Source: an uncultured Opitutales bacterium
Lineage (GTDB): Bacteria > Verrucomicrobiota > Verrucomicrobiia > Opitutales > Intestinicryptomonadaceae
Length of the DNA stretch: 64,000 nucleotides
Direction of reading: 5' to 3'
Assembly (NCBI GenBank): GCA_944389885.1
Contig: CALXNZ010000004.1
Coordinates: 62,001-126,000, forward strand
Part shown: positions 14,889 through 30,981 of the stretch, piece after piece
Layout of the letters: each line of letters starts with the position of its first letter
How positions within the stretch are numbered: position 1 is the first letter of the stretch
Notes under the pieces: model-generated
Databases searched by the model: none
Told to the model about the DNA's origin: nothing
The model's input: the letters and a program-made list of their open reading frames with translations, nothing else
Position numbers and translations under genes: made by a program

Positions 14889-14927
14889 AAAAAATCCGAA
14901 GGATTAAATTAACCCTTCGGATTTTTT
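14889..14927. terminator. bidirectional intrinsic terminator
   Basis: Perfect 14-bp inverted repeat (14889-14902 with 14914-14927; core TCCGAAGG/CCTTCGGA), with A6 on the left and T6 on the right. It closes yicC on the plus strand and the convergent secreted-protein gene on the minus strand. Confidence 0.92.
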
Positions 14928-14961: not shown

Positions 14962-15900
14962 TTATTTTACCTCCAATAGGAGATCGTTGGGGGTTCTCGT
15001 ATCTCTGCTGCGTGGAGAACCGCCCATGTATATTTTCATTGTCTTCTTTCCTATTGTAAGGGGATCGCCCAAATTGTAGGTGTTGTCGTTCACTTTGAAG
15101 CTGCGTATATTTTCCAATCCGCTCTTTTTGGCGTTGCATTCTATCAGCGGATATATACCGGGTTTTATATCGTCTTTTAAGACCACTTCCACATCAAAAG
15201 ATTCCAATACTCCTTTGCGGTTGAATTTTATTGATGGAACATTGCCGCCTTTAGGTTCAAATCTAAGCCTAAAACTCCATTGCGCAGGATCGTCTTTTAT
15301 TATCGAATCTATCATCGCACCGCCGTTAAAGTTTAACTCTGATTTGCCTATCATGTTTATCATAAGACAGGCAGGTTCCGAGTTCTGCAGTTGGGGGTTG
15401 GCCGCAAGAATTACGGTCAGATCGCTCTTGACGTTCATCTTTGTGTTTTCCAACCTCAATTCGGAACGTCCCGCGGACATATGCTTATGCCATATAGCGT
15501 ATTCAAACGCTCCGCCTACGTCAACGGTGCAATCCGACAAGTCCATCAAAGTTGTACAATTTGCGGGTGGAACCGTGAGGCGAAGGCTTCTGTTTACTTT
15601 CAAGGTGCGCTTGGCAGAGTGGAGTTCGGAATCGTCTCCCACAACGAGGTATCCGACATTTATATTTTGATCGACCATCAGCGAATATCTGCCATGCCTT
15701 ACGGCAGCATAGTCCGTAGAACCCGGTTTTGACGGCAGCGGATCGACTTTGAAGTTGACGTTGTTTGTCCATATACATGTGCTCCACTTAAGACTTTTCT
15801 CGCTTTCTGGAACATCATGTTGGCCGGCGTAGTGGTTCATCGCCGATAAAGGAAGAATCGCGCATGCGCATGAGCAAAAATAAAATAGAATCTTTTTCAT
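14962..15900 (-). CDS. secreted protein, paralogue of the divergent gene at 16093
   Basis: 312-residue exported protein of unknown function. A signal peptide ends near LSA (about 20). The body is Ser/Thr/Asn-rich with short hydrophobic beta strands, like the beta-solenoid proteins common in this phylum, but there is no PEP-CTERM tail. It matches the divergent gene along its whole length: WSTCIWTN near the N-terminus, PLPSKPG, SELRLENTKMNVK, an MIDSIIKDDPA block, KKSG and the identical ending LLLEVK / LVLEVK. The two genes start 192 bp apart and face away from each other. No paralogue of this pair occurs elsewhere in the window. Confidence 0.85.
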   Translation of the reverse strand: MKKILFYFCSCACAILPLSAMNHYAGQHDVPESEKSLKWSTCIWTNNVNFKVDPLPSKPGSTDYAAVRHGRYSLMVDQNINVGYLVVGDDSELHSAKRTLKVNRSLRLTVPPANCTTLMDLSDCTVDVGGAFEYAIWHKHMSAGRSELRLENTKMNVKSDLTVILAANPQLQNSEPACLMINMIGKSELNFNGGAMIDSIIKDDPAQWSFRLRFEPKGGNVPSIKFNRKGVLESFDVEVVLKDDIKPGIYPLIECNAKKSGLENIRSFKVNDNTYNLGDPLTIGKKTMKIYMGGSPRSRDTRTPNDLLLEVK

Positions 15901-16092
15901 ATTTAAGTCATATAAATCACAGTTTTAAAAAGTCAACACAAGAGCTGTTGATATTAATTTTGAATTGTAATGTTTTATGGTCGAACCATGCAAATTTTTT
16001 ATTCCAATATAAATTTGACAAATACAAAAGTGTTTTAAAAATTTCGATTCTCATTTGCACTTTTTACTTCAAGCGTAAATAAACTATAAAAT
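15901..16092. promoter_or_regulatory. divergent promoter region between the paralogous secreted proteins
   Basis: AT-rich, 192 bp. On the minus strand, TTGACT (15931-15936) and TATATG (15909-15914) are 16 bp apart and would start transcription almost at the ATG at 15900, giving a leaderless message. On the plus strand TTGACA lies at 16015-16020 with an A/T-rich but poorly matching -10. Both are guesses by eye. Confidence 0.35.
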
Positions 16093-17028
16093 ATGAAAAA
16101 ACTACTCTCCATCTCCATTCTGCTGATCTTCGCGGTGTCCGCCCATGCTCTCGAATTCCTTTGCGGACAATACGGCGATACCGGCGACCAAAAAAATGTC
16201 AAATGGAGCACATGCATATGGACAAATTCCTTAGCCTTTAAGGTTAAGCCTCTGCCATCGAAGCCGGGCCCGAACGACGCCGTCACGGTGCGCCACGGCG
16301 GGCATGTATTGACCGTTGACGTCAATCCCGAAGTCAAGTCGCTAAGGGTGGGTGACTCTTCCACTCTTGTAGCCGACAAGCGCAATATAAGAGTAAAGCA
16401 GTCTTTCTTTTTGCCGATTACCCGCAAAAATGAATTAACGCTGGCTGAGATTAAGAATAGTACTGTCGAGGTAAAAGGCTCTTTGGAATATAGCGTTTGG
16501 CACAAGTATATGAATGCCGGCGCGGCAGAGTTGCGATTGGAAAATACAAAAATGAAAGTAAAGGGCGATTTGCGCGCAATTCTCGCGGTGAATCCCAATT
16601 ATAATTGCGACACGAAGGCCGGTTTTGAAATCACCCTAATTGGCAATTCAGTTCTGGAATTTGGCGGGGGAGCTCTCCTTGACTCTATAATTAAAGACGA
16701 TCCCGCGCATTGGTATTGCAAGTTTAAATTTATCGTGAAAAACGGTATGGCTCCTATGCTTGTGTTCGATAAAGACGCCGAAATAAAATCTGCGGATATT
16801 GATGTGGAAGTGCAGGGAGATTTAAAGAAGGGTTCTTATGTGTTGGCTGAATTTGCCCAAAAGAAAAGCGGTTTCACTTCGGTGCGCAGCGTAAAATTTA
16901 ACGGAAAATCTTATACTCTCGGCTCTGAGATTCCCCTGGGAAAAAATAAGGCTGTTCTGAAAATAGCCGCTTCACCAAAAGATCGCGGCTCAAAAATAGA
17001 GAACGATTTGGTTCTTGAAGTCAAATAG
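16093..17028 (+). CDS. secreted protein, paralogue of the divergent gene at 14962
   Basis: 311-residue exported protein with a clean signal peptide (cut near AHA, about 19). It shares colinear blocks with its divergent neighbour: WSTCIWTN, PLPSKPG, AELRLENTKMKVKGDL, LLDSIIKDDPAHW, KKSG and the last residues DLVLEVK. The layout is one domain of probable beta-helix or beta-sandwich type over the full length. Function is unknown; similar lengths and conserved Cys-Ile-Trp motif suggest they act as a matched pair outside the inner membrane. Closed by the terminator at 17058-17100. Confidence 0.85.
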   Translation: MKKLLSISILLIFAVSAHALEFLCGQYGDTGDQKNVKWSTCIWTNSLAFKVKPLPSKPGPNDAVTVRHGGHVLTVDVNPEVKSLRVGDSSTLVADKRNIRVKQSFFLPITRKNELTLAEIKNSTVEVKGSLEYSVWHKYMNAGAAELRLENTKMKVKGDLRAILAVNPNYNCDTKAGFEITLIGNSVLEFGGGALLDSIIKDDPAHWYCKFKFIVKNGMAPMLVFDKDAEIKSADIDVEVQGDLKKGSYVLAEFAQKKSGFTSVRSVKFNGKSYTLGSEIPLGKNKAVLKIAASPKDRGSKIENDLVLEVK

Positions 17029-17057
17029 GATAGATTTCTCAATTATTTCATACTGAC

Positions 17058-17100
17058 ATAAAAATTCCCGTTGGCATTTATTTGGCGCGGGAATTTTTAT
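17058..17100 (+). terminator. intrinsic terminator
   Basis: Perfect 13-bp stem (17058-17070 with 17088-17100; core AATTCCCG/CGGGAATT) with a 17-nt loop and T5 within the right arm. It lies 30 bp after the 16093-17028 gene. Confidence 0.88.
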
Positions 17101-17207
17101 GTATGTCGGGGTGATTTCGTTGTGTTCTGTGTTCGGTGGGCCAGTTAAAATTTCTATGCGCGCAAAATATGTTTGTAGATGCGGGTAATTTTTTATAGCC
17201 TAAATTT

Positions 17208-18449
17208 GTGAAGATTAAATCGCTCGAATTGGAAAACTTTCGCGGGATTGTAAACCACAAGGTTTATTTTGACCCTGTATTAACTGTCTTTGCCGGACGA
17301 AATGGCGGAGGAAAATCGACTATTCTTGAGGCCATAGCAATTATGCTGTCTTGGATTCCCGTTAGAATAGGATACGATATAAAAGCGGAAAAAATAAAGG
17401 ATTCCGATATAACTTTCGGGAGGGATTTTTCGCGGCTTGAGTTGGAGCTTGAGTCGCGCGGCGGATTGATGACGCTGAAAATGTATAAAAGAGCGGGCAG
17501 AAAAAATTCCGCGGAGACCGGGGGAATGAGCGCGGCATTGGATTACGGCAGGCAAATGCGCGTCAGCCTCGACGCAAATAAAAATTCCGATTTGGAACTT
17601 CCGGTATTCGCTTTTTACCGGTCGAACCGCAACGGCAGGGGAGCTCCATTTCCCGATTCTTCAACAAGGGATACTGTTTATAAAAACGCATTTTTTGCGG
17701 GTACGGATTTTGCAAAGTTTTCGCGGGGATTTGCCAAGGCGCTCGCGGCAAGATCTGCGGAAATGAGAGAAGCCTCATCAATGCCGCTAAAAAAAGGGAA
17801 CCTTAGAAGAGTAGAAATTTCACAGAAATATTTATGGCTGGATTCCATAAGGCGGGCTTTAGAAGCATTTCTTCCAACACACTATGTATTTAGGGAATCA
17901 TGCGGCAAACTTTATGTGAAGGATATTCCGGCAGAATGCCTTTCCGAGGGCGAAAAAACCGTCATCGCCCTCATCGCCGATATTGCCATGCGCATGGTCG
18001 TGGCAAATCCATATAGCAGAAATCATCTGTCGGCCAAGGCGATTGTCCTTGTGGACGAACTCGATATTCATCTGCACCCGGATTGGCAGGCGGCTATAGC
18101 AAAAAAATTGCCGCAGATATTTCCAAATGCCCAGTTTATCATATCTTCGCACTCTCCTTCGGTATTGTCGGTGGCTCCGAGCCTTTACAAAATCGACGGG
18201 GACATTCGCGGGACCCAAATTCAACATGTGGAATCGACTTTCGGGAGGGAGCCGTCTGACATCTTGGCGACTGTAATGAACGCAAAACGCGACGAGTCTG
18301 TCGGAGAACGCTTGAAAAAACTCTATTCCTTAATCGATAGGCGCAAATTTAACGAGGCGTCGCGGCTGCTCGCGGATTTGCATGAAATGCTGCCCGACGA
18401 TCCGGAACTCGTGCGCGCCGACTATCTTATAAGGGCTCTTAATTCTTAG
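17208..18449 (+). CDS. ptuA: PtuA-like AAA ATPase of a Septu-type defence cassette
   Basis: 413-residue ABC/RecF-class ATPase. It has Walker A GRNGGGKS (30-37), the signature LSEGEK (245-250), Walker B IVLVDELDIH (279-288) and the switch SSHSP (313-317). The C-terminal 60 residues are helical with an alternating ELV/ADY pattern, as seen in ATPases of the PtuA/retron-Ec78 group. The start is GTG at 17208. It is followed 6 bases later by an HNH nuclease, the defining Septu gene pair, in which PtuA assembles with PtuB to cut nucleic acid during phage infection. No reverse transcriptase or retron RNA is visible nearby, so this is not a retron form. Confidence 0.85.
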   Translation: MKIKSLELENFRGIVNHKVYFDPVLTVFAGRNGGGKSTILEAIAIMLSWIPVRIGYDIKAEKIKDSDITFGRDFSRLELELESRGGLMTLKMYKRAGRKNSAETGGMSAALDYGRQMRVSLDANKNSDLELPVFAFYRSNRNGRGAPFPDSSTRDTVYKNAFFAGTDFAKFSRGFAKALAARSAEMREASSMPLKKGNLRRVEISQKYLWLDSIRRALEAFLPTHYVFRESCGKLYVKDIPAECLSEGEKTVIALIADIAMRMVVANPYSRNHLSAKAIVLVDELDIHLHPDWQAAIAKKLPQIFPNAQFIISSHSPSVLSVAPSLYKIDGDIRGTQIQHVESTFGREPSDILATVMNAKRDESVGERLKKLYSLIDRRKFNEASRLLADLHEMLPDDPELVRADYLIRALNS

Positions 18450-18455
18450 TCGCAG

Positions 18456-19157
18456 ATGAGGCACATACCGCAACCTTTGGAAAACGAATCGCCGAGAATA
18501 TTTCAGCGTTGGAAGAATCGCCATCGCGGCGCCAAATATGCCCGCCTGAAAGACGGCGACGTAAAGAAGGCCATAAAGGAGGCTCTCATTTCAAGGCAGA
18601 AATTTATATGCTGCTATTGTGAAACTCGCATAAGCCGCGGAACGTCGCATATAGAACACATAGAGCCGCAGCTGGGAGGGTTGTCCGCCAAGACTTTGGA
18701 CTTCTCAAATATGGCGGCCTCATGTATTCGCGAGCCAAAGAAGGGCGATTATATTCGCGACGAGGAAAGCGGGGTAGTCTCTCCGCACAGTACAATCCAT
18801 TGCGGCCACGCAAGGGGATCGCATAGGGTCATATCTCCGTACGACGCTAAATGCGAATCCCTCTTTTCTTATTCTTTTAGCGGAGAAATTTCTGTAAATC
18901 CGGACCTGACTGAAGTCGCGGATAAAAATCTTGCACAGGACAGCATAACCTATCTCAATTTAAATTCGGAATCGCTTATCGCAATGCGCAAGATAGCGAT
19001 GCTTGAAACGGTCAAGATGCTTGAAAAAGGAATTGCGCCGGCCGATATACTGCGCGAATTGTCAGGAAAATTGCCGCCGTTTTATTCGGCGGCAAAAACC
19101 GCGGCGCAAATTTTTAATTCTTCAAGGAATACGGTTGGCAATACGGCAAATTCTTAA
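18456..19157 (+). CDS. ptuB: PtuB-like HNH endonuclease of a Septu-type defence cassette
   Basis: 233-residue nuclease of the retron-Ec78/Septu HNH group. The treble-clef HNH reads CCYCE (52-56), SHIEHIEP (64-71), Asn85, and a second zinc half CGHAR (116-120) followed by ISPYD. The N-terminus (IPQP near residue 4) and the helical C-terminal 100 residues also fit the group. It lies 6 bases after ptuA and is co-transcribed. It converges with the GH92 gene, leaving only 6 bases between stops and no visible terminator. Confidence 0.85.
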   Translation: MRHIPQPLENESPRIFQRWKNRHRGAKYARLKDGDVKKAIKEALISRQKFICCYCETRISRGTSHIEHIEPQLGGLSAKTLDFSNMAASCIREPKKGDYIRDEESGVVSPHSTIHCGHARGSHRVISPYDAKCESLFSYSFSGEISVNPDLTEVADKNLAQDSITYLNLNSESLIAMRKIAMLETVKMLEKGIAPADILRELSGKLPPFYSAAKTAAQIFNSSRNTVGNTANS

Positions 19158-19163
19158 AAGCCC

Positions 19164-21353
19164 CTATTTGTCAGCGGTCATATCGAATTCGAGAGTCCCG
19201 CCCTCCATTATATCCGCGTGGGATATTGTTTTTGAAGTGTGGGGTTTGCCGTTTAAGGTCACAGACTTCACATACTTGTTTTCCCTGCTCAAATTCTTGG
19301 CTTTAATTGTAAATTTTTTGCCGTTTTCAAGATTTACGACAATTCTGTCCGCCTGTGGCGCCCCTATTACATACTCGGCGGAACATGGATCTACGGGATA
19401 AAATCCCATGCATGCGAATATATACCATGCGCTCATTTGTCCGCAATCGTCGTTGCCGCAGAGCCCGTCGGGGGCGGGGAGATAAAATTTGTCGCACACT
19501 TCGCGAACCAGCTCGTGGGTCCTGCTTGGCTTGTCGGCCAGAGCAAACATGTAAACTATATGGTGGCTCGGTTCGTTTCCGTGCACATATTGGCCTATCA
19601 GTCCCGTTATATCGGAGCTCTTTTTCACATTGTCAAACCCTCGGCTGTCTATGGCTGTAAAAAGCATATTTAGGCGTTCGCAAAAGGCGTCGTTGCCGCC
19701 AAACAGAGAAATCAGCCCGGGGACGTCCTGCTGGACATGCCAAGTGTATTGCCATGCACTGCCTTCGGTGTAATCTCCGCCTATGGTTCCGTCGTGGGAG
19801 AAATCAAATGGATTGAAGGGCTTGCGCCAGTTTCCTTTGCTATCGCGCCCGCGCATAAATTTGGTCTCCGGGTCAAAAAGATTCTTGTAGAATTGAGAGC
19901 GCCTTTCAAATTCGCCCGCGATATTATCGTCTCCGAGCTTTTTTGCAGCCCGCGCGACGCATGAATCGTTGTAAACGGCTTCAAGCGTGCTCGATACCGA
20001 TTCCGTCTTGCGTATGTCGAAAGGAAGATAACCGTATTTTAGGTATTCGTTCCATTCAGACTTGAAGTGCGGAACGGTAGAAGATTTCACCATGGCGTCC
20101 AAAGCTTTTTTTCTGTCGAATCCGTCAAATCCCTTTATGATTGCCTCTGAAATTACCGATATTGCATGGTTGCCTATCATGCAATGGGTTTCCTTTCCCC
20201 AGTAAACGTTTACGGGCAAATATCCCTTGGCATCGTGGTGGGCAAGCATTGTGTTTACAAAGCTTGGTACCAAAGAAGGCACAAGTATTGTATAGAGCGG
20301 GTGGGCCGCCCTATATGTGTCCCATAAAGACCAGGAACTAAAGTAATTGCCGTCGGCCGATTTTGCGGTCTTTCCGTTTACGTCGTCGTATTTTCCGTCC
20401 ACATCGCTCAGATTGTTAGGCTGGAGAAAGAGGTGGTAAACGCTTGTATAGAACGCTTTCTTCGTGTTAGGATCGGCGTCTATCTCGAATTTTGAGAGTA
20501 TTTTCGACCACTTCTGGCGGGCTTGGGAGAGCGTCTTTTCAAACTCCCAGTGCGGCAGTTCCGCAAGCATATTATTTTTTGCGCCCTCTGGGGAAACTGT
20601 TGAAATCGCCACTTTTAAGAGTAGTTCTTCCCCCTTTTTCAAACCGAAATCCAAAATCATTCTCTCGCCGAGCCAGCCGTTTTTAGCCGGTAATTTTTCC
20701 ACGTTTTTCACGGGCTTGTCAAAGGCCATGTAAAAGCAGACGTTTCTCATCTTTGTAAAGCCGCTTATGCGCTGTTGGCCGCATATTGAATATGCGTCGG
20801 GAATACTTACTTTCTCGCTTTTGACACGGTTGGGATTTGAGCATATGCCGCTTTGTAAATCCAAGTATATTTTCCCGCCGTCGGCGTTGTATCGTATTCT
20901 GTAAAAAGCGACTCTCTCTGTGGCTGTAATTTCAACTTCGGCGTTTGCGTCGTCGAGCTTTACAAAATAATATCCGGCTTCGGCGCGCTCGTTTTTCTTA
21001 TCGAAAGAGCTGCCGTTTTTGGCGTCGTCGTTTGCCGCGTACGGCATAATGGCGACGTCTCCAAAATCGGGACAACCTGTTCCGTTCATGTGCGTTTGTC
21101 CGAACGAAAGTATTTTTTTATCCTTGTAATCGTATCCGGAACAGTATTGCCATGTATTCTTTCCCGTCTCAGGGCTTGCCTGGACGAGTCCGAAAGGCAT
21201 GGCGGCCCCGGGATATGTATGTCCGGTTCCGGTGGTGCCTATGAACGGATCTACATAGCACAGAACGTCACTATTGGCCGCCGGTTGCATGCCATATGCG
21301 TCCATGCATAACAGAATAATAAAAACCACTGTTTCCCTCGCAAACTTCAACAT
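19164..21353 (-). CDS. GH92 family alpha-mannosidase, secreted
   Basis: Calcium-dependent exo-alpha-mannosidase family enzyme of 729 residues, trimming mannose from N-glycans or mannans. The start at 21353 is preferred because GGAGG lies 5 bases upstream (21359-21363); the longer TTG start would skip this site. A signal peptide covers about 1-22. Family marks are VDPFIGTTGTGHTYPGA near the mature N-terminus, GQTHMNGTGCPDFGD, the catalytic-acid block GNEPSHHIVY, and DDCGQMSAWYIFACMGFYPV. Location is periplasmic or outer-surface. Alpha-1,2 specificity is the commonest in the family but cannot be read from this sequence. Confidence 0.95.
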   Translation of the reverse strand: MLKFARETVVFIILLCMDAYGMQPAANSDVLCYVDPFIGTTGTGHTYPGAAMPFGLVQASPETGKNTWQYCSGYDYKDKKILSFGQTHMNGTGCPDFGDVAIMPYAANDDAKNGSSFDKKNERAEAGYYFVKLDDANAEVEITATERVAFYRIRYNADGGKIYLDLQSGICSNPNRVKSEKVSIPDAYSICGQQRISGFTKMRNVCFYMAFDKPVKNVEKLPAKNGWLGERMILDFGLKKGEELLLKVAISTVSPEGAKNNMLAELPHWEFEKTLSQARQKWSKILSKFEIDADPNTKKAFYTSVYHLFLQPNNLSDVDGKYDDVNGKTAKSADGNYFSSWSLWDTYRAAHPLYTILVPSLVPSFVNTMLAHHDAKGYLPVNVYWGKETHCMIGNHAISVISEAIIKGFDGFDRKKALDAMVKSSTVPHFKSEWNEYLKYGYLPFDIRKTESVSSTLEAVYNDSCVARAAKKLGDDNIAGEFERRSQFYKNLFDPETKFMRGRDSKGNWRKPFNPFDFSHDGTIGGDYTEGSAWQYTWHVQQDVPGLISLFGGNDAFCERLNMLFTAIDSRGFDNVKKSSDITGLIGQYVHGNEPSHHIVYMFALADKPSRTHELVREVCDKFYLPAPDGLCGNDDCGQMSAWYIFACMGFYPVDPCSAEYVIGAPQADRIVVNLENGKKFTIKAKNLSRENKYVKSVTLNGKPHTSKTISHADIMEGGTLEFDMTADK

Positions 21354-21578
21354 GTGTGCCTCCAATTTAGTTAATCGTTAAATTTTGCTTCAGTAAAGGC
21401 TTTAATTCATTTTATTGTCTCGTGGCAAGAAAAATTTTAGAATTTGCGAATTTTTAATTTAATGTCTTGTTGCCCACAGGATTTTGAAAGTTTATATCGG
21501 GAGGGAAATCGTTTGAAATACTTGAAAATGCAGCCTTTATTCGTTGACTCGCAAGTTCTTCAAACTAACATCTGCTCT

Positions 21579-22619
21579 ATGAAATATCTCTTCTTAACAT
21601 TTTCAGCTTTGATTGTATCTTTAGCCTCTATGGCTTATGAGGAGTCCGTGCTTTCTCCGAAGGATCCTTTGGTGGGATATTATAAGGGAAGAATAGAGGG
21701 GGCAACTCGCTATCCCTTCAATGTCGATAAAAATATGTGCGCGGAAATCCATAGGGGGCCGGAAGGGTATCGCATCCGCCTGATGTCCGATGTCATGACG
21801 CGCTCTGAAATTCACGCGGAGGTCGGGGGGCTTAAGGCAGAATCAGATTTAATAAAACTTGATGCGGCAGGAGATTGGAAGCTTTCCGGAACAATAAAAC
21901 CCGAAGGATTCACGCTTGCCGCCAAGGTGGACGGGAAAGATGCTCTCCTAAAATTTGAGCCGCTTAAAATTGTTTCTCCGACAATGGGCAAACGTCCGCC
22001 TAAAGGCGCATTAGTGCTTTTTGACGGCTCCGGACTTGATGAATGGAAACAAGCCTTTGACGGAACTCCGTGCGTTTGGAATTTAAAAGACGGCGCTATG
22101 ATATCAAAAGGTCTTGAGAAAAACGGTAAAAAATGCGACGGCAGCATAGTTAGTAAGAGAAATTTTGGGGCTCTGCGCATGCATATTGAATTTAAAATAC
22201 CCGCAGAATATTCTGTGATCCAATATAGCAGGGGAAATTCGGGACTGTATATAGGCCCTTATGAAATTCAAATTCTCGACTCGTTTGGCAAAGACGGAAA
22301 TTTTGGAGAGTGCGGTTCAATATACAGAATTATTCCCCCAAAAGTGAATGCCTGTTTGGAGCCTGAAGTTTGGCAGACTTTTGATGTAGAATTTTTCCCG
22401 GCACAGTTTGACGGGGATAAGCTTGTGAAAAATCCCGTAATAAGCGTGTGGCAAAACGGAGTGCGAATACACTTTTGCGAGGAAATTTCCCGTCCGACAA
22501 ACCTACAGCCGGAAAATGTAGGCTATAAACATCCGCAAGGCAAATTGCCAATTGCGATTCAAGACCATTTGCACCCTGTGGCATTTAGAAATATTTGGGT
22601 GGAAGAAATTGAAAAATAA
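21579..22619 (+). CDS. DUF1080 (3-keto-disaccharide hydrolase-like) secreted protein
   Basis: 346 residues from ATG 21579, where a clear signal peptide begins (MKYLFLTFSALIVSLASMA); the frame is open further upstream but that stretch is not protein-like. An N-terminal domain of about 130 residues is followed by a DUF1080 jelly-roll (LFDGSGLDEWKQ, then HIEFKIP, GNSGLYI, YEIQILDSFG and LPIAIQDHLHPVAFRNIWV). Some DUF1080 proteins hydrolyse 3-keto-glycosides, but no substrate can be assigned here. It is divergent from GH92 and 10-16 bases upstream of the GDPD gene, so probably co-transcribed with it. Confidence 0.88.
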   Translation: MKYLFLTFSALIVSLASMAYEESVLSPKDPLVGYYKGRIEGATRYPFNVDKNMCAEIHRGPEGYRIRLMSDVMTRSEIHAEVGGLKAESDLIKLDAAGDWKLSGTIKPEGFTLAAKVDGKDALLKFEPLKIVSPTMGKRPPKGALVLFDGSGLDEWKQAFDGTPCVWNLKDGAMISKGLEKNGKKCDGSIVSKRNFGALRMHIEFKIPAEYSVIQYSRGNSGLYIGPYEIQILDSFGKDGNFGECGSIYRIIPPKVNACLEPEVWQTFDVEFFPAQFDGDKLVKNPVISVWQNGVRIHFCEEISRPTNLQPENVGYKHPQGKLPIAIQDHLHPVAFRNIWVEEIEK

Positions 22620-22629
22620 TATAAATCTT

Positions 22630-23463
22630 ATGCATATGAAAAATTTTATTATGAGTTTAATCGCCGTTTCCACAACTTGCTTCGCATCGGCTTTTGATGT
22701 GGTTGCCCATCGCGGGGAATTTTCTCTTGCTCCCGAAAATACTTTGGAAGCTTTTTCTTTGGCTTGGAAAAACGGGGCCAAATATGTGGAAGGGGACTTC
22801 CATATGAACTCCGAAGGCGAAATCCTCGTATTCCATACCGAATCCGATTTGAGAAGAATCTGGAATATAAACAAAAAGGCCCGCGAGTTGACAATCGACG
22901 ATGTAAAAAAGTCTAATCTGAAAGACAATCCGCGTTGGTCCGCAAAATTTCCAAACACAAGAATTCCCACGATAGACGAAGTCTTTAAAATAATCCCAAA
23001 AGACGCTGTCTTGGTTCTCGAAATAAAAACTTTCGGCAAAGGTTATGTTGAAAAGGTTGAGGAACTGCGCAAAGCAAACGGACTTTCATACGATAATATC
23101 CTTCTAATATCTTTTGATAAAAAACCAATCGCCGAATTTAAGGCAAAATTCCCAAAGTACAAGGCGCTATGGCTTTACGCTGTTAAAGCTGCCAAGGACG
23201 GAAGCTTGTCTCCGTCGGCAGAAGAGGCGATATCGGTGTGCCGGGAAATAAACGCTGATGGCGTTGACATCGGGAATGTCGGAGATCCTAAATGTCCTAA
23301 AATCGATGGGGAATATGTCGAGGCCTTTAAAAAGGCCGGCCTCGCATTTTGGGTATGGACGGAAGACAATCTAAACACCATTCCGCTTTACAAAAAGTTG
23401 GGAGTTGACGGCGTCACAACTAATAAGTCTTCGGAGATGCTGAAGTCTCTGGAAAACAGATAG
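22630..23463 (+). CDS. glycerophosphodiester phosphodiesterase, exported
   Basis: 277-residue GDPD with a signal peptide (to about CFASA). It hydrolyses glycerophosphodiesters from lipid head groups to glycerol-3-phosphate plus alcohol. The TIM-barrel active-site residues are present: AHRGEFSLAPENTLEAF (His-Arg and Glu-Asn), EGDFHMNSEGEILVFH (metal-binding Glu/Asp and catalytic His) and the C-terminal FWVWTEDN. ATG 22636 is an alternative start two codons later. It follows the DUF1080 gene closely. Confidence 0.92.
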   Translation: MHMKNFIMSLIAVSTTCFASAFDVVAHRGEFSLAPENTLEAFSLAWKNGAKYVEGDFHMNSEGEILVFHTESDLRRIWNINKKARELTIDDVKKSNLKDNPRWSAKFPNTRIPTIDEVFKIIPKDAVLVLEIKTFGKGYVEKVEELRKANGLSYDNILLISFDKKPIAEFKAKFPKYKALWLYAVKAAKDGSLSPSAEEAISVCREINADGVDIGNVGDPKCPKIDGEYVEAFKKAGLAFWVWTEDNLNTIPLYKKLGVDGVTTNKSSEMLKSLENR

Positions 23464-29346: not shown

Positions 29347-30981
29347 TTATTCTCGTATTGTTATGTCTTTTAATACCGGATTTGCTGTTTGATGCAATTT
29401 AATAGGCTCAGAGCCGTTGTTTTCAAACACGCAATTTTCGATTGTCGTAGTGCCGTTTACAGGACCTTCGCAAGGCATTCCCTTTGAGAATGACGTAGCG
29501 TCGAGAATAGCGGCGGGCTGGGCCCCCGATCTGCTGTTGCAGTTGTTAAAACGGCAATTCCGTATATTTACTTTTTGTGTTCTAAATCCTTCGTACCAAT
29601 AGTTGGCATCGTTTTCCATCAGTATGGCGGCTCCGGTCGGATAGTCGAATGAGCAGCTGTCTATTGTGGCGTTGGAAACTTTTATGAGAAATCCCCGAGC
29701 CCTGTTTCCCCGAACTTTGCAGTTGCGGATAGTGAGCTTGGGATCGGCGGACATATTCCCCATGGGCATTCCCTTGCAGACGTAGTCGGGCAGGGGCTCT
29801 TCCAGATCTAATATCCAAGTCATTGATTCCGGGTCGAGTTCGAGCTTTGTCACATTCGAGAATGCTCCGAATCTAAACCAGTTATTTGATTCGCCAAATG
29901 CGATTTTATCGCCCACGCGCGGTAGGAATTCTTTAATGTATGATGGATTGCCCTGTGTTTTCTTCCCCCAGGTTATTCTAATTTTTTGGGGAGAGATTTT
30001 TTCTTCGAGAAGCCAATACATTTGGTGTACATTTGTGGCGTCGTCCCCCATTTTTTCAAAGCGGGAATTCAATATTTCGATTTTTCCCCGACAATAATTG
30101 AAATGGGTTGCATCGGCAGTGGCGCTCATCCATAGATCTTTACTCTTTGCGACTACATTTAGGTTATCTATGAGAATGTTTTGGGTGTTTGAACCGTGGA
30201 TTCCCATGCCGGAGTGTGTATATATATTTATGTTGTATATGCGTATATTTTTACCGCCCCTCAAACTAAATGCCGCAGGTCCGTAAACTTCATAGCGCAC
30301 GACGACATCGCTGCCTATAGGCGGGATTCTGCGCATTGCGTATTTCTCCAATGGAACGCGCATAGTGGTTTCCGAAAGTTTTTTTATGCGCAAATTTGTG
30401 GCTAATTGGTAAATGTCGGTGCCGCCCCAGTCCATGGCGTCCCTGTCTTTGTTAAAGGAAATTACGGCCTTAGGGTGAACCTCGCGAACAACATGCGGAG
30501 GAACAACCTCGCAGTCGAAATAAGAGTCTCCGTGGGCTATTACTTTTGCGCCGGCAAAGGGTATGGGGTCGGTTTCAAAATTCATATTTGCAAAAGTCAT
30601 GCTTTTGCATTCGTCAACGAGAAAATTGGTCCATTGCTTATGCCTTACCAAGGTGGCCCCGGCTCCGTCAACCATTATATTCTTCATATTTACAAAAGGT
30701 AATGCCGATCCATTGATTTCGCTCAATAGGTCATAGCGCCCGGGTTCTAAAACTATGCGCACACCGCCTTTCTCGGAAAGTTTTTCGGCTTCGGCGATTG
30801 CTTTGCGCAATGGTTCCGCGTCGTCTTTCCCGTCGTCGGGTATTGCGCCGAAGTCTTTCGCGGAAATAGTTTGAGGGTAAAGTTTGAGGGCGTCGTCGTA
30901 AGTCAGTGGAGCTGAATTTGCAACTTGAAATGATCCAGCAACAATAATTGACGCGAGCGCAATATAATATATATTCTTCAT
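29347..30981 (-). CDS. secreted GH110-like (alpha-1,3-galactosidase-type) beta-helix enzyme
   Basis: 544-residue exported right-handed beta-helix protein with a signal peptide (to about VANSA). The N-terminal block DFGAIPDDGKDD is shared by pectin-lyase-fold enzymes. The central region SATADATHF (Asp290) and MGDDATNVH (Asp313, Asp314) resembles the GH110 catalytic site, whose three aspartates, as I recall them, have the same 23/24-residue spacing. GH110 enzymes remove terminal alpha-1,3-galactose from host glycans or algal carrageenan. Repeated short strands with Asn/Ser turns continue to the C-terminus. A GH28- or PL-type relative is the main alternative. It lies alone, convergent with asd and downstream of a decayed region. 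Confidence 0.75.
   Translation of the reverse strand: MKNIYYIALASIIVAGSFQVANSAPLTYDDALKLYPQTISAKDFGAIPDDGKDDAEPLRKAIAEAEKLSEKGGVRIVLEPGRYDLLSEINGSALPFVNMKNIMVDGAGATLVRHKQWTNFLVDECKSMTFANMNFETDPIPFAGAKVIAHGDSYFDCEVVPPHVVREVHPKAVISFNKDRDAMDWGGTDIYQLATNLRIKKLSETTMRVPLEKYAMRRIPPIGSDVVVRYEVYGPAAFSLRGGKNIRIYNINIYTHSGMGIHGSNTQNILIDNLNVVAKSKDLWMSATADATHFNYCRGKIEILNSRFEKMGDDATNVHQMYWLLEEKISPQKIRITWGKKTQGNPSYIKEFLPRVGDKIAFGESNNWFRFGAFSNVTKLELDPESMTWILDLEEPLPDYVCKGMPMGNMSADPKLTIRNCKVRGNRARGFLIKVSNATIDSCSFDYPTGAAILMENDANYWYEGFRTQKVNIRNCRFNNCNSRSGAQPAAILDATSFSKGMPCEGPVNGTTTIENCVFENNGSEPIKLHQTANPVLKDITIRE

What the first reader, a model, noticed from the sequence alone, without database searches (positions are those of the whole stretch)
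14962..17028. Divergent pair of full-length paralogous secreted proteins of unknown family
Seen: genes of 312 and 311 residues, back to back with 192 bp between starts, share WSTCIWTN, PLPSKPG, AELRLENTKM-like, DSIIKDDPA, KKSG and the DLxLEVK end in the same order, both with signal peptides. Inferred: tandem inversion duplication kept as two diverged copies, possibly partners or alternately expressed. I cannot name a family, so this is a good candidate for an undescribed surface system next to a defence cassette.
Basis: partly seen in the sequence, partly recalled or inferred. Interest (0 to 1): 0.6.

Follow-up and report, generated by a model that had tools for sequence, protein, structure and literature searches.

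The report
Paired secreted autotransporter-like beta-helix proteins
Two back-to-back genes in a gut Opitutales bacterium make duplicated copies of a small secreted rod-shaped protein, from a family found so far only in this one genus, which looks like the outer part of an autotransporter adhesin without its membrane anchor; the pairing itself is a local accident, not a conserved two-part system.

Summary
ORFs 14962-15900 (-) and 16093-17028 (+) are 312 and 311 aa, their starts are 192 bp apart, and they are 44% identical end to end (E 2e-93), each with a signal-peptide-like N-terminus. The family is undescribed: nothing passes a Pfam, NCBIfam, PHROGs or PADLOC cut-off. It is confined to one Opitutales genus: 29 copies in all 13 readable genomes of the genus, and no clear member in samples of the order, class and phylum. 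The fold is not new. AlphaFold models of both copies (pLDDT 93-94) are right-handed beta-helices whose best structural matches are the C-terminal halves of autotransporter passengers (EspC, SepA, pertactin, EspP; Z 14-16). They lack the autotransporter barrel, a PEP-CTERM tail and a lipobox. The 'pair' reading fails. Only this genome has a divergent pair; the others have single genes or head-to-tail arrays of 2-3. The two copies are sisters in the tree, so this is a lineage-specific duplication. The adjacent Septu genes are absent from every other family neighbourhood. Most likely function: an extracellular or envelope beta-helix adhesin/matrix protein that diversifies quickly. That function is inferred, not shown.

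The parts
14962..15900 (-). copy A: 312-aa secreted right-handed beta-helix protein (signal peptide, helix, C-terminal NDLLLEVK end)
   Evidence: AF2 pLDDT 93.6, pTM 0.89; fold matches
16093..17028 (+). copy B: 311-aa paralogue of copy A, same architecture
   Evidence: AF2 pLDDT 92.7, pTM 0.89; fold matches
15901..16092 (.). 192-bp divergent intergenic region between the two starts; contains weak promoter-like hexamers on both strands (16015-16042 +, 16021-15994 -), no more than expected by chance overall
14889..14927 (.). bidirectional intrinsic-terminator hairpin (19-nt arms, 95%, T-runs on both strands) between yicC and copy A
   Evidence: (z -5.6 / -6.6)
17056..17102 (.). terminator hairpin (15-nt perfect arms) downstream of copy B, before Septu
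   Evidence: (z -5.2)

Best explanation
Both genes encode small Sec-exported proteins that fold into a single right-handed beta-helix rod like the C-terminal half of an autotransporter passenger, including its C-terminal cap. They end exactly where related secreted proteins carry an anchor or translocator. They belong to a family restricted to one gut-associated Opitutales genus, in which each gene is an independent unit that duplicates, moves and diverges quickly under purifying selection. In the window lineage one gene was duplicated in inverted orientation, giving two separately terminated genes that share an upstream region. Most likely role (inferred): a soluble or matrix/envelope-associated adhesin or glycan-binding surface protein, with paralogues of different specificity, working alongside the genus's large PEP-CTERM/exosortase exoproteome. 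Shown by computation: homology, genus restriction, high-confidence predicted fold, absence of known anchors, lineage-specific duplication. Inferred: export, final location, ligand binding.
For: Both AF2 models are confident. VIA-align ranks autotransporter passengers first for both copies, clearly above the pectate lyases and tailspikes at Z 8-10. Copy B: EspC Z 16.1 (207 residues, 3.3 A), SepA 15.2, pertactin 15.0, EspP 14.0. Copy A: 15.1, 14.6, 14.2, 14.0. The matched stretches (EspP 741-995, pertactin 290-535) include the autochaperone region given for EspP (D869-I979) and most of that given for pertactin (D444-L556) in PMC5767081. Other matches are secreted adhesins or binders: tapirin (6n2b, Z 10.5), L. 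reuteri SRRP (5nxk, Z 11) and the xylan-binding beta-helix CBM89 (7jvi, Z 12.2; PMC8810776). There are 29 copies in 13 of 13 readable genomes of the genus. Fast but purifying evolution: orthologues 46-66% identical where neighbouring ATP synthase alpha/beta are 85-91%; dN 0.29-0.49; dS about 2-3 where computable, i.e. saturated. PEP-CTERM proteins and exosortase occur in all 13 readable genomes. Terminators on both flanks make each gene its own unit.
Against: No ligand, location or phenotype is known. Foldseek itself gives no PDB hit below E 0.001. Sequence relationship to autotransporters or PEP-CTERM proteins is not demonstrated: the one PEP-CTERM hit (G310, E 8e-4 in one of 286 genomes) is not significant after correction, and hhalign against PEP-CTERM proteins of the genus finds nothing solid. 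No outer-membrane export route is identified, so the protein could stay in the periplasm. Autotransporter-type beta-helices also occur in enzymes and toxins.
Confidence: 0.5

Rival explanations
1. Periplasmic or outer-membrane-inner-face structural beta-helix that stays inside the envelope, since no outer-membrane export signal or barrel is present.
For: Signal peptide only; no barrel, PEP-CTERM tail or lipobox in the window copies; no PF03797 in the own genome at all.
Against: Rapid divergence and repeated expansion are more typical of exposed proteins; the fold matches cluster with surface passengers.
Confidence: 0.25
2. A small polysaccharide lyase, hydrolase or other beta-helix enzyme acting on gut glycans.
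For: Right-handed beta-helix; pectate lyases and PL6 at Z 8-10; invariant Asp residues D62, D76, D197 in copy B; glycan-processing genes nearby in the window (GH92, PF06439).
Against: No CAZyme Pfam/NCBIfam hit; the enzyme matches score well below the passengers; the glycan neighbours are not conserved with the family.
Confidence: 0.12
3. A functional two-partner pair (heteromer or alternately expressed switch).
For: Both copies intact and diverged, with a shared 192-bp upstream region.
Against: Only 1 of 13 genomes has a divergent pair; four have single genes, others have separate loci or head-to-tail arrays. No long, well-matched inverted repeats flank an invertible segment; the 77-nt, 73% pair is the coding paralogy itself.
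Confidence: 0.08
4. Accessory to the adjacent Septu defence system (for example a phage decoy or receptor).
For: Immediate adjacency, 179 bp from the copy B stop to the PtuA start.
Against: Strong terminator between them; no PtuA/PtuB in the other family neighbourhoods fetched; no PADLOC hit for either copy.
Confidence: 0.03

Closest known systems
Type Va autotransporter passenger domains (EspC, SepA, pertactin, EspP, IcsA, Ag43)
   Same: Predicted right-handed beta-helix; the whole mature protein overlays the C-terminal half of the passenger including its autochaperone region; signal peptide
   Different: No PF03797 barrel or linker; about 290 mature residues; about 10% sequence identity; none of the autotransporter-passenger Pfam models is hit
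PEP-CTERM/exosortase secreted proteins of Verrucomicrobiota
   Same: Same genomes, secreted, single-gene units, lineage-specific expansion; one PEP-CTERM protein of similar size in another family (G310, L067) aligns weakly over the C-terminal third
   Different: No PEP-CTERM tail; the protein ends at NDLxLEVK; homology not statistically established
G8 domain (PF10162)
   Same: Weak match of residues 57-101 of copy B (19.6 bits)
   Different: Below the curated cut-off of 22.9 bits; only 2 of 29 members match at all; covers only positions 7-51 of 124
CBM89 (7jvi) and tapirin (6n2b) beta-helix binders
   Same: Non-catalytic secreted right-handed beta-helix; structural Z 10.5-12
   Different: No sequence similarity found; ligand binding untested here; CBM89 is part of a xylanase

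Membership tests
Type Va autotransporter | C-terminal 12-strand beta-barrel (PF03797) in the same polypeptide | tested here: not met
   Pfam scan of both copies and all 29 members; no PF03797 anywhere in the own genome; the protein ends at the last helix strand
Type Va autotransporter | Right-handed beta-helix passenger with C-terminal autochaperone-like cap | tested here: met
   AF2 pLDDT 93-94; VIA Z 14-16 to EspC, SepA, pertactin and EspP C-terminal halves; predicted models, not solved structures
PEP-CTERM protein | C-terminal PEP motif + TM helix + basic cluster (PF07589) | tested here: not met
   No hit in any of 29 members; C-termini end in NDLxLEVK or variants
PEP-CTERM protein | Exosortase and PEP-CTERM substrates in the genome | tested here: met
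   PF09721 and PF07589 in all 13 readable genomes of the genus
G8 domain (PF10162) | Score above the Pfam gathering cut-off | tested here: not met
   19.6 vs 22.9 bits in copy B, none in copy A
Bacterial lipoprotein | Lipobox [LVI][ASTVI][GAS]C at the signal peptide end | tested here: not met
   None in either window copy; 1 of 29 homologues shows the pattern
Conserved two-gene partner system | Homologues regularly occur as divergent pairs | tested here: not met
   1 of 13 genomes
CBM89 / beta-helix carbohydrate binder | Glycan binding | not testable with these tools
   Fold similarity only

The most novel reading that the evidence does not exclude
A genus-specific class of free-standing, anchorless 'passenger-only' beta-helix proteins, derived from autotransporter-type or PEP-CTERM-type surface proteins by loss of the anchor, that forms a released adhesive or matrix layer in gut Opitutales and diversifies by lineage-specific duplication.
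Probability: 0.3. Interest if true: 0.45.

Novelty: new variant of a known kind. Interest (0 to 1): 0.27.

Why it matters
The surface and secreted proteins of gut Opitutales are little studied. A family present in every readable genome of a genus and nowhere else found, encoding a compact, confidently predicted soluble beta-helix, is a tractable handle on what these bacteria display or release. It also suggests that autotransporter-like helices can exist as free proteins without their own translocator. It does not reveal a new two-component surface or defence mechanism.

Tried and rejected
1. 'The only family-negative genus member (G067) also lacks PEP-CTERM and exosortase, so they are linked': rejected. 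G067 also gave zero candidates for ATP synthase beta, and two fetched 20-kb stretches are all N, so the genome appears to be withheld and says nothing.
2. Sequence link to PEP-CTERM proteins through G310/L067: suggestive layout, but the E-value does not survive correction for 286 genomes; 27 ORFs with PEP-CTERM-like C-termini from the genus gave no solid hhalign match.
3. Phage origin: no match in phages by tblastn, none in viral contigs, no BFVD fold hit below E 0.001; a short weak PHROG hit ignored.
4. PDB sequence profile search: one meaningless hit.
5. The ATP-synthase-side locus in the own genome: no family gene next to the atp operon, so the window locus is a relocated or different site.
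6. Promoter scan: no more sites than shuffles. The terminator pattern scan missed the two hairpins, which folding and repeat search found.
7. A 308-aa secreted neighbour of the atp operon (L102) tested as a relative: not one.

Full report
Observation. The two ORFs are exactly as described: 14962-15900 (-), 312 aa, and 16093-17028 (+), 311 aa, with 192 bp between their starts. They are 44% identical over their whole length (BLASTP E 2e-93). Identity is spread along the alignment, and the score of 677 compares with a mean of 35 in shuffles. Strong hairpins bound the pair at 14889-14927 and 17056-17102, so the pair is insulated from yicC on one side and Septu on the other, and each gene is its own unit.

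Family and distribution. No Pfam, NCBIfam, PHROGs or PADLOC model is passed; the best is a sub-threshold G8 match in copy B. The own genome holds only these two copies. A genus search found 29 homologues in 13 of 14 genomes. The fourteenth, G067, cannot count: it gave no match even for ATP synthase beta, and the two 20-kb stretches fetched from it are all N. Outside the genus, single-protein and profile searches of order, class and phylum samples (132, 286 and 387 genomes) found only two marginal hits, G310 at E 8e-4 and G618 at E 0.008. The first GTDB scan, with copy B, found nothing. The second, with closer homologues, named five members, all MAGs titled Opitutales or Verrucomicrobiota (a gut origin is my inference from the isolate labels). 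Viral and phage collections are negative.

Is the pair conserved? No. G036, G102, G115 and G135 have one copy. G051, G081, G016 and G132 have separate loci. G127, G133 and G136 have head-to-tail arrays of three, and G134 an array of two plus two others. Only the window genome has a divergent pair. Several contigs are short, so some copies may be missed. In the tree the two window copies are sisters (99/98), so this is a duplication private to that lineage (gene conversion is not excluded). The three-gene arrays of G133 and G136 are at least partly orthologous (two of three genes pair up with full support), which shows that paralogues can be kept across species. Common homes of the gene are the 3' end of the ATP synthase operon, between atpC and Rrf2/greA or surE, and next to nusA-infB. 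The window genome has no family gene beside its atp operon. None of the other family neighbourhoods fetched contains a PtuA, PtuB or YicC homologue, so adjacency to Septu is incidental.

Selection. Between G051 and G081 the atp-side family orthologues are 66% identical while ATP synthase alpha/beta are 88-90%. Between G102 and G115 the figures are 46% and 85-91%. dN is 0.29-0.49 and dS about 2-3 where computable, so the genes evolve quickly but under purifying selection. dS is saturated, so the ratio is only rough.

Fold. AlphaFold2 on the 29-sequence alignment gives pLDDT 92.7 and 93.6, pTM 0.89, for copies B and A: a signal helix followed by an almost all-beta solenoid to the C-terminus. Foldseek gives no PDB hit below E 0.001, but its top ten are all autotransporter passengers. 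VIA-align on those candidates gives, for B, EspC Z 16.1 (207 residues, 3.3 A), SepA 15.2, pertactin 15.0, IcsA 14.2 and EspP 14.0; for A, 15.1, 14.6, 14.2, 13.3 and 14.0. Pectate lyases and tailspikes follow at Z 8-10. The matched stretches (EspP 741-995, pertactin 290-535) cover or largely cover the autochaperone regions defined in PMC5767081. The window proteins therefore look like the C-terminal half of a passenger that stops where a barrel or anchor would begin. No barrel, PEP-CTERM tail or lipobox is present in the window copies. The genus does have a large PEP-CTERM set and exosortase in all 13 readable genomes, and some members have true autotransporter barrels. PEP-CTERM proteins are likewise usually single-gene units with rapid lineage-specific expansion (PMC1569441), so this family shares their genomic habit without their tail.

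Mechanism. Shown by computation: homologous pair, genus-restricted family, confident beta-helix prediction, absence of known anchors, lineage-specific inverted duplication, independent gene units. Inferred: Sec export; extracellular or envelope location; adhesive or glycan-binding role, by analogy to passengers, tapirins, SRRP and CBM89 (7jvi, a non-catalytic xylan-binding beta-helix, PMC8810776). How the protein would cross the outer membrane is not known.

Verdict. Interest is low to moderate.

Noticed in passing
window 17208-19157: Septu type I defence pair: PtuA (17208-18449, PADLOC PDLC00271 E 2.8e-85) and PtuB (18456-19157, PDLC00332 E 7e-39), immediately downstream of copy B.
   Followed up: partly
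window 19164-23463: GH92 family enzyme (19164-21365, -), a 3-keto-disaccharide hydrolase domain protein (21444-22619) and a GDPD phosphodiesterase (22552-23463) follow Septu: a small glycan/phosphodiester cluster.
   Followed up: no
window 29347-30981: 544-aa secreted-looking beta-helix protein (PF13229 E 1e-12; weak PF12708), a second unrelated beta-helix in the window.
   Followed up: no
G000:C4:32979-33152 (L015 1363-3075): 570-aa beta-helix-like PEP-CTERM protein upstream of the window with a sub-threshold G8 match.
   Followed up: partly
L058, L059: Three-gene head-to-tail arrays of the same family in G133 and G136 with two of three genes pairing as orthologues: long-kept paralogues.
   Followed up: partly
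G067: Two 20-kb stretches fetched from this genome read entirely as N and it gives no candidates for any query tried, so it should not be counted as lacking anything.
   Followed up: yes
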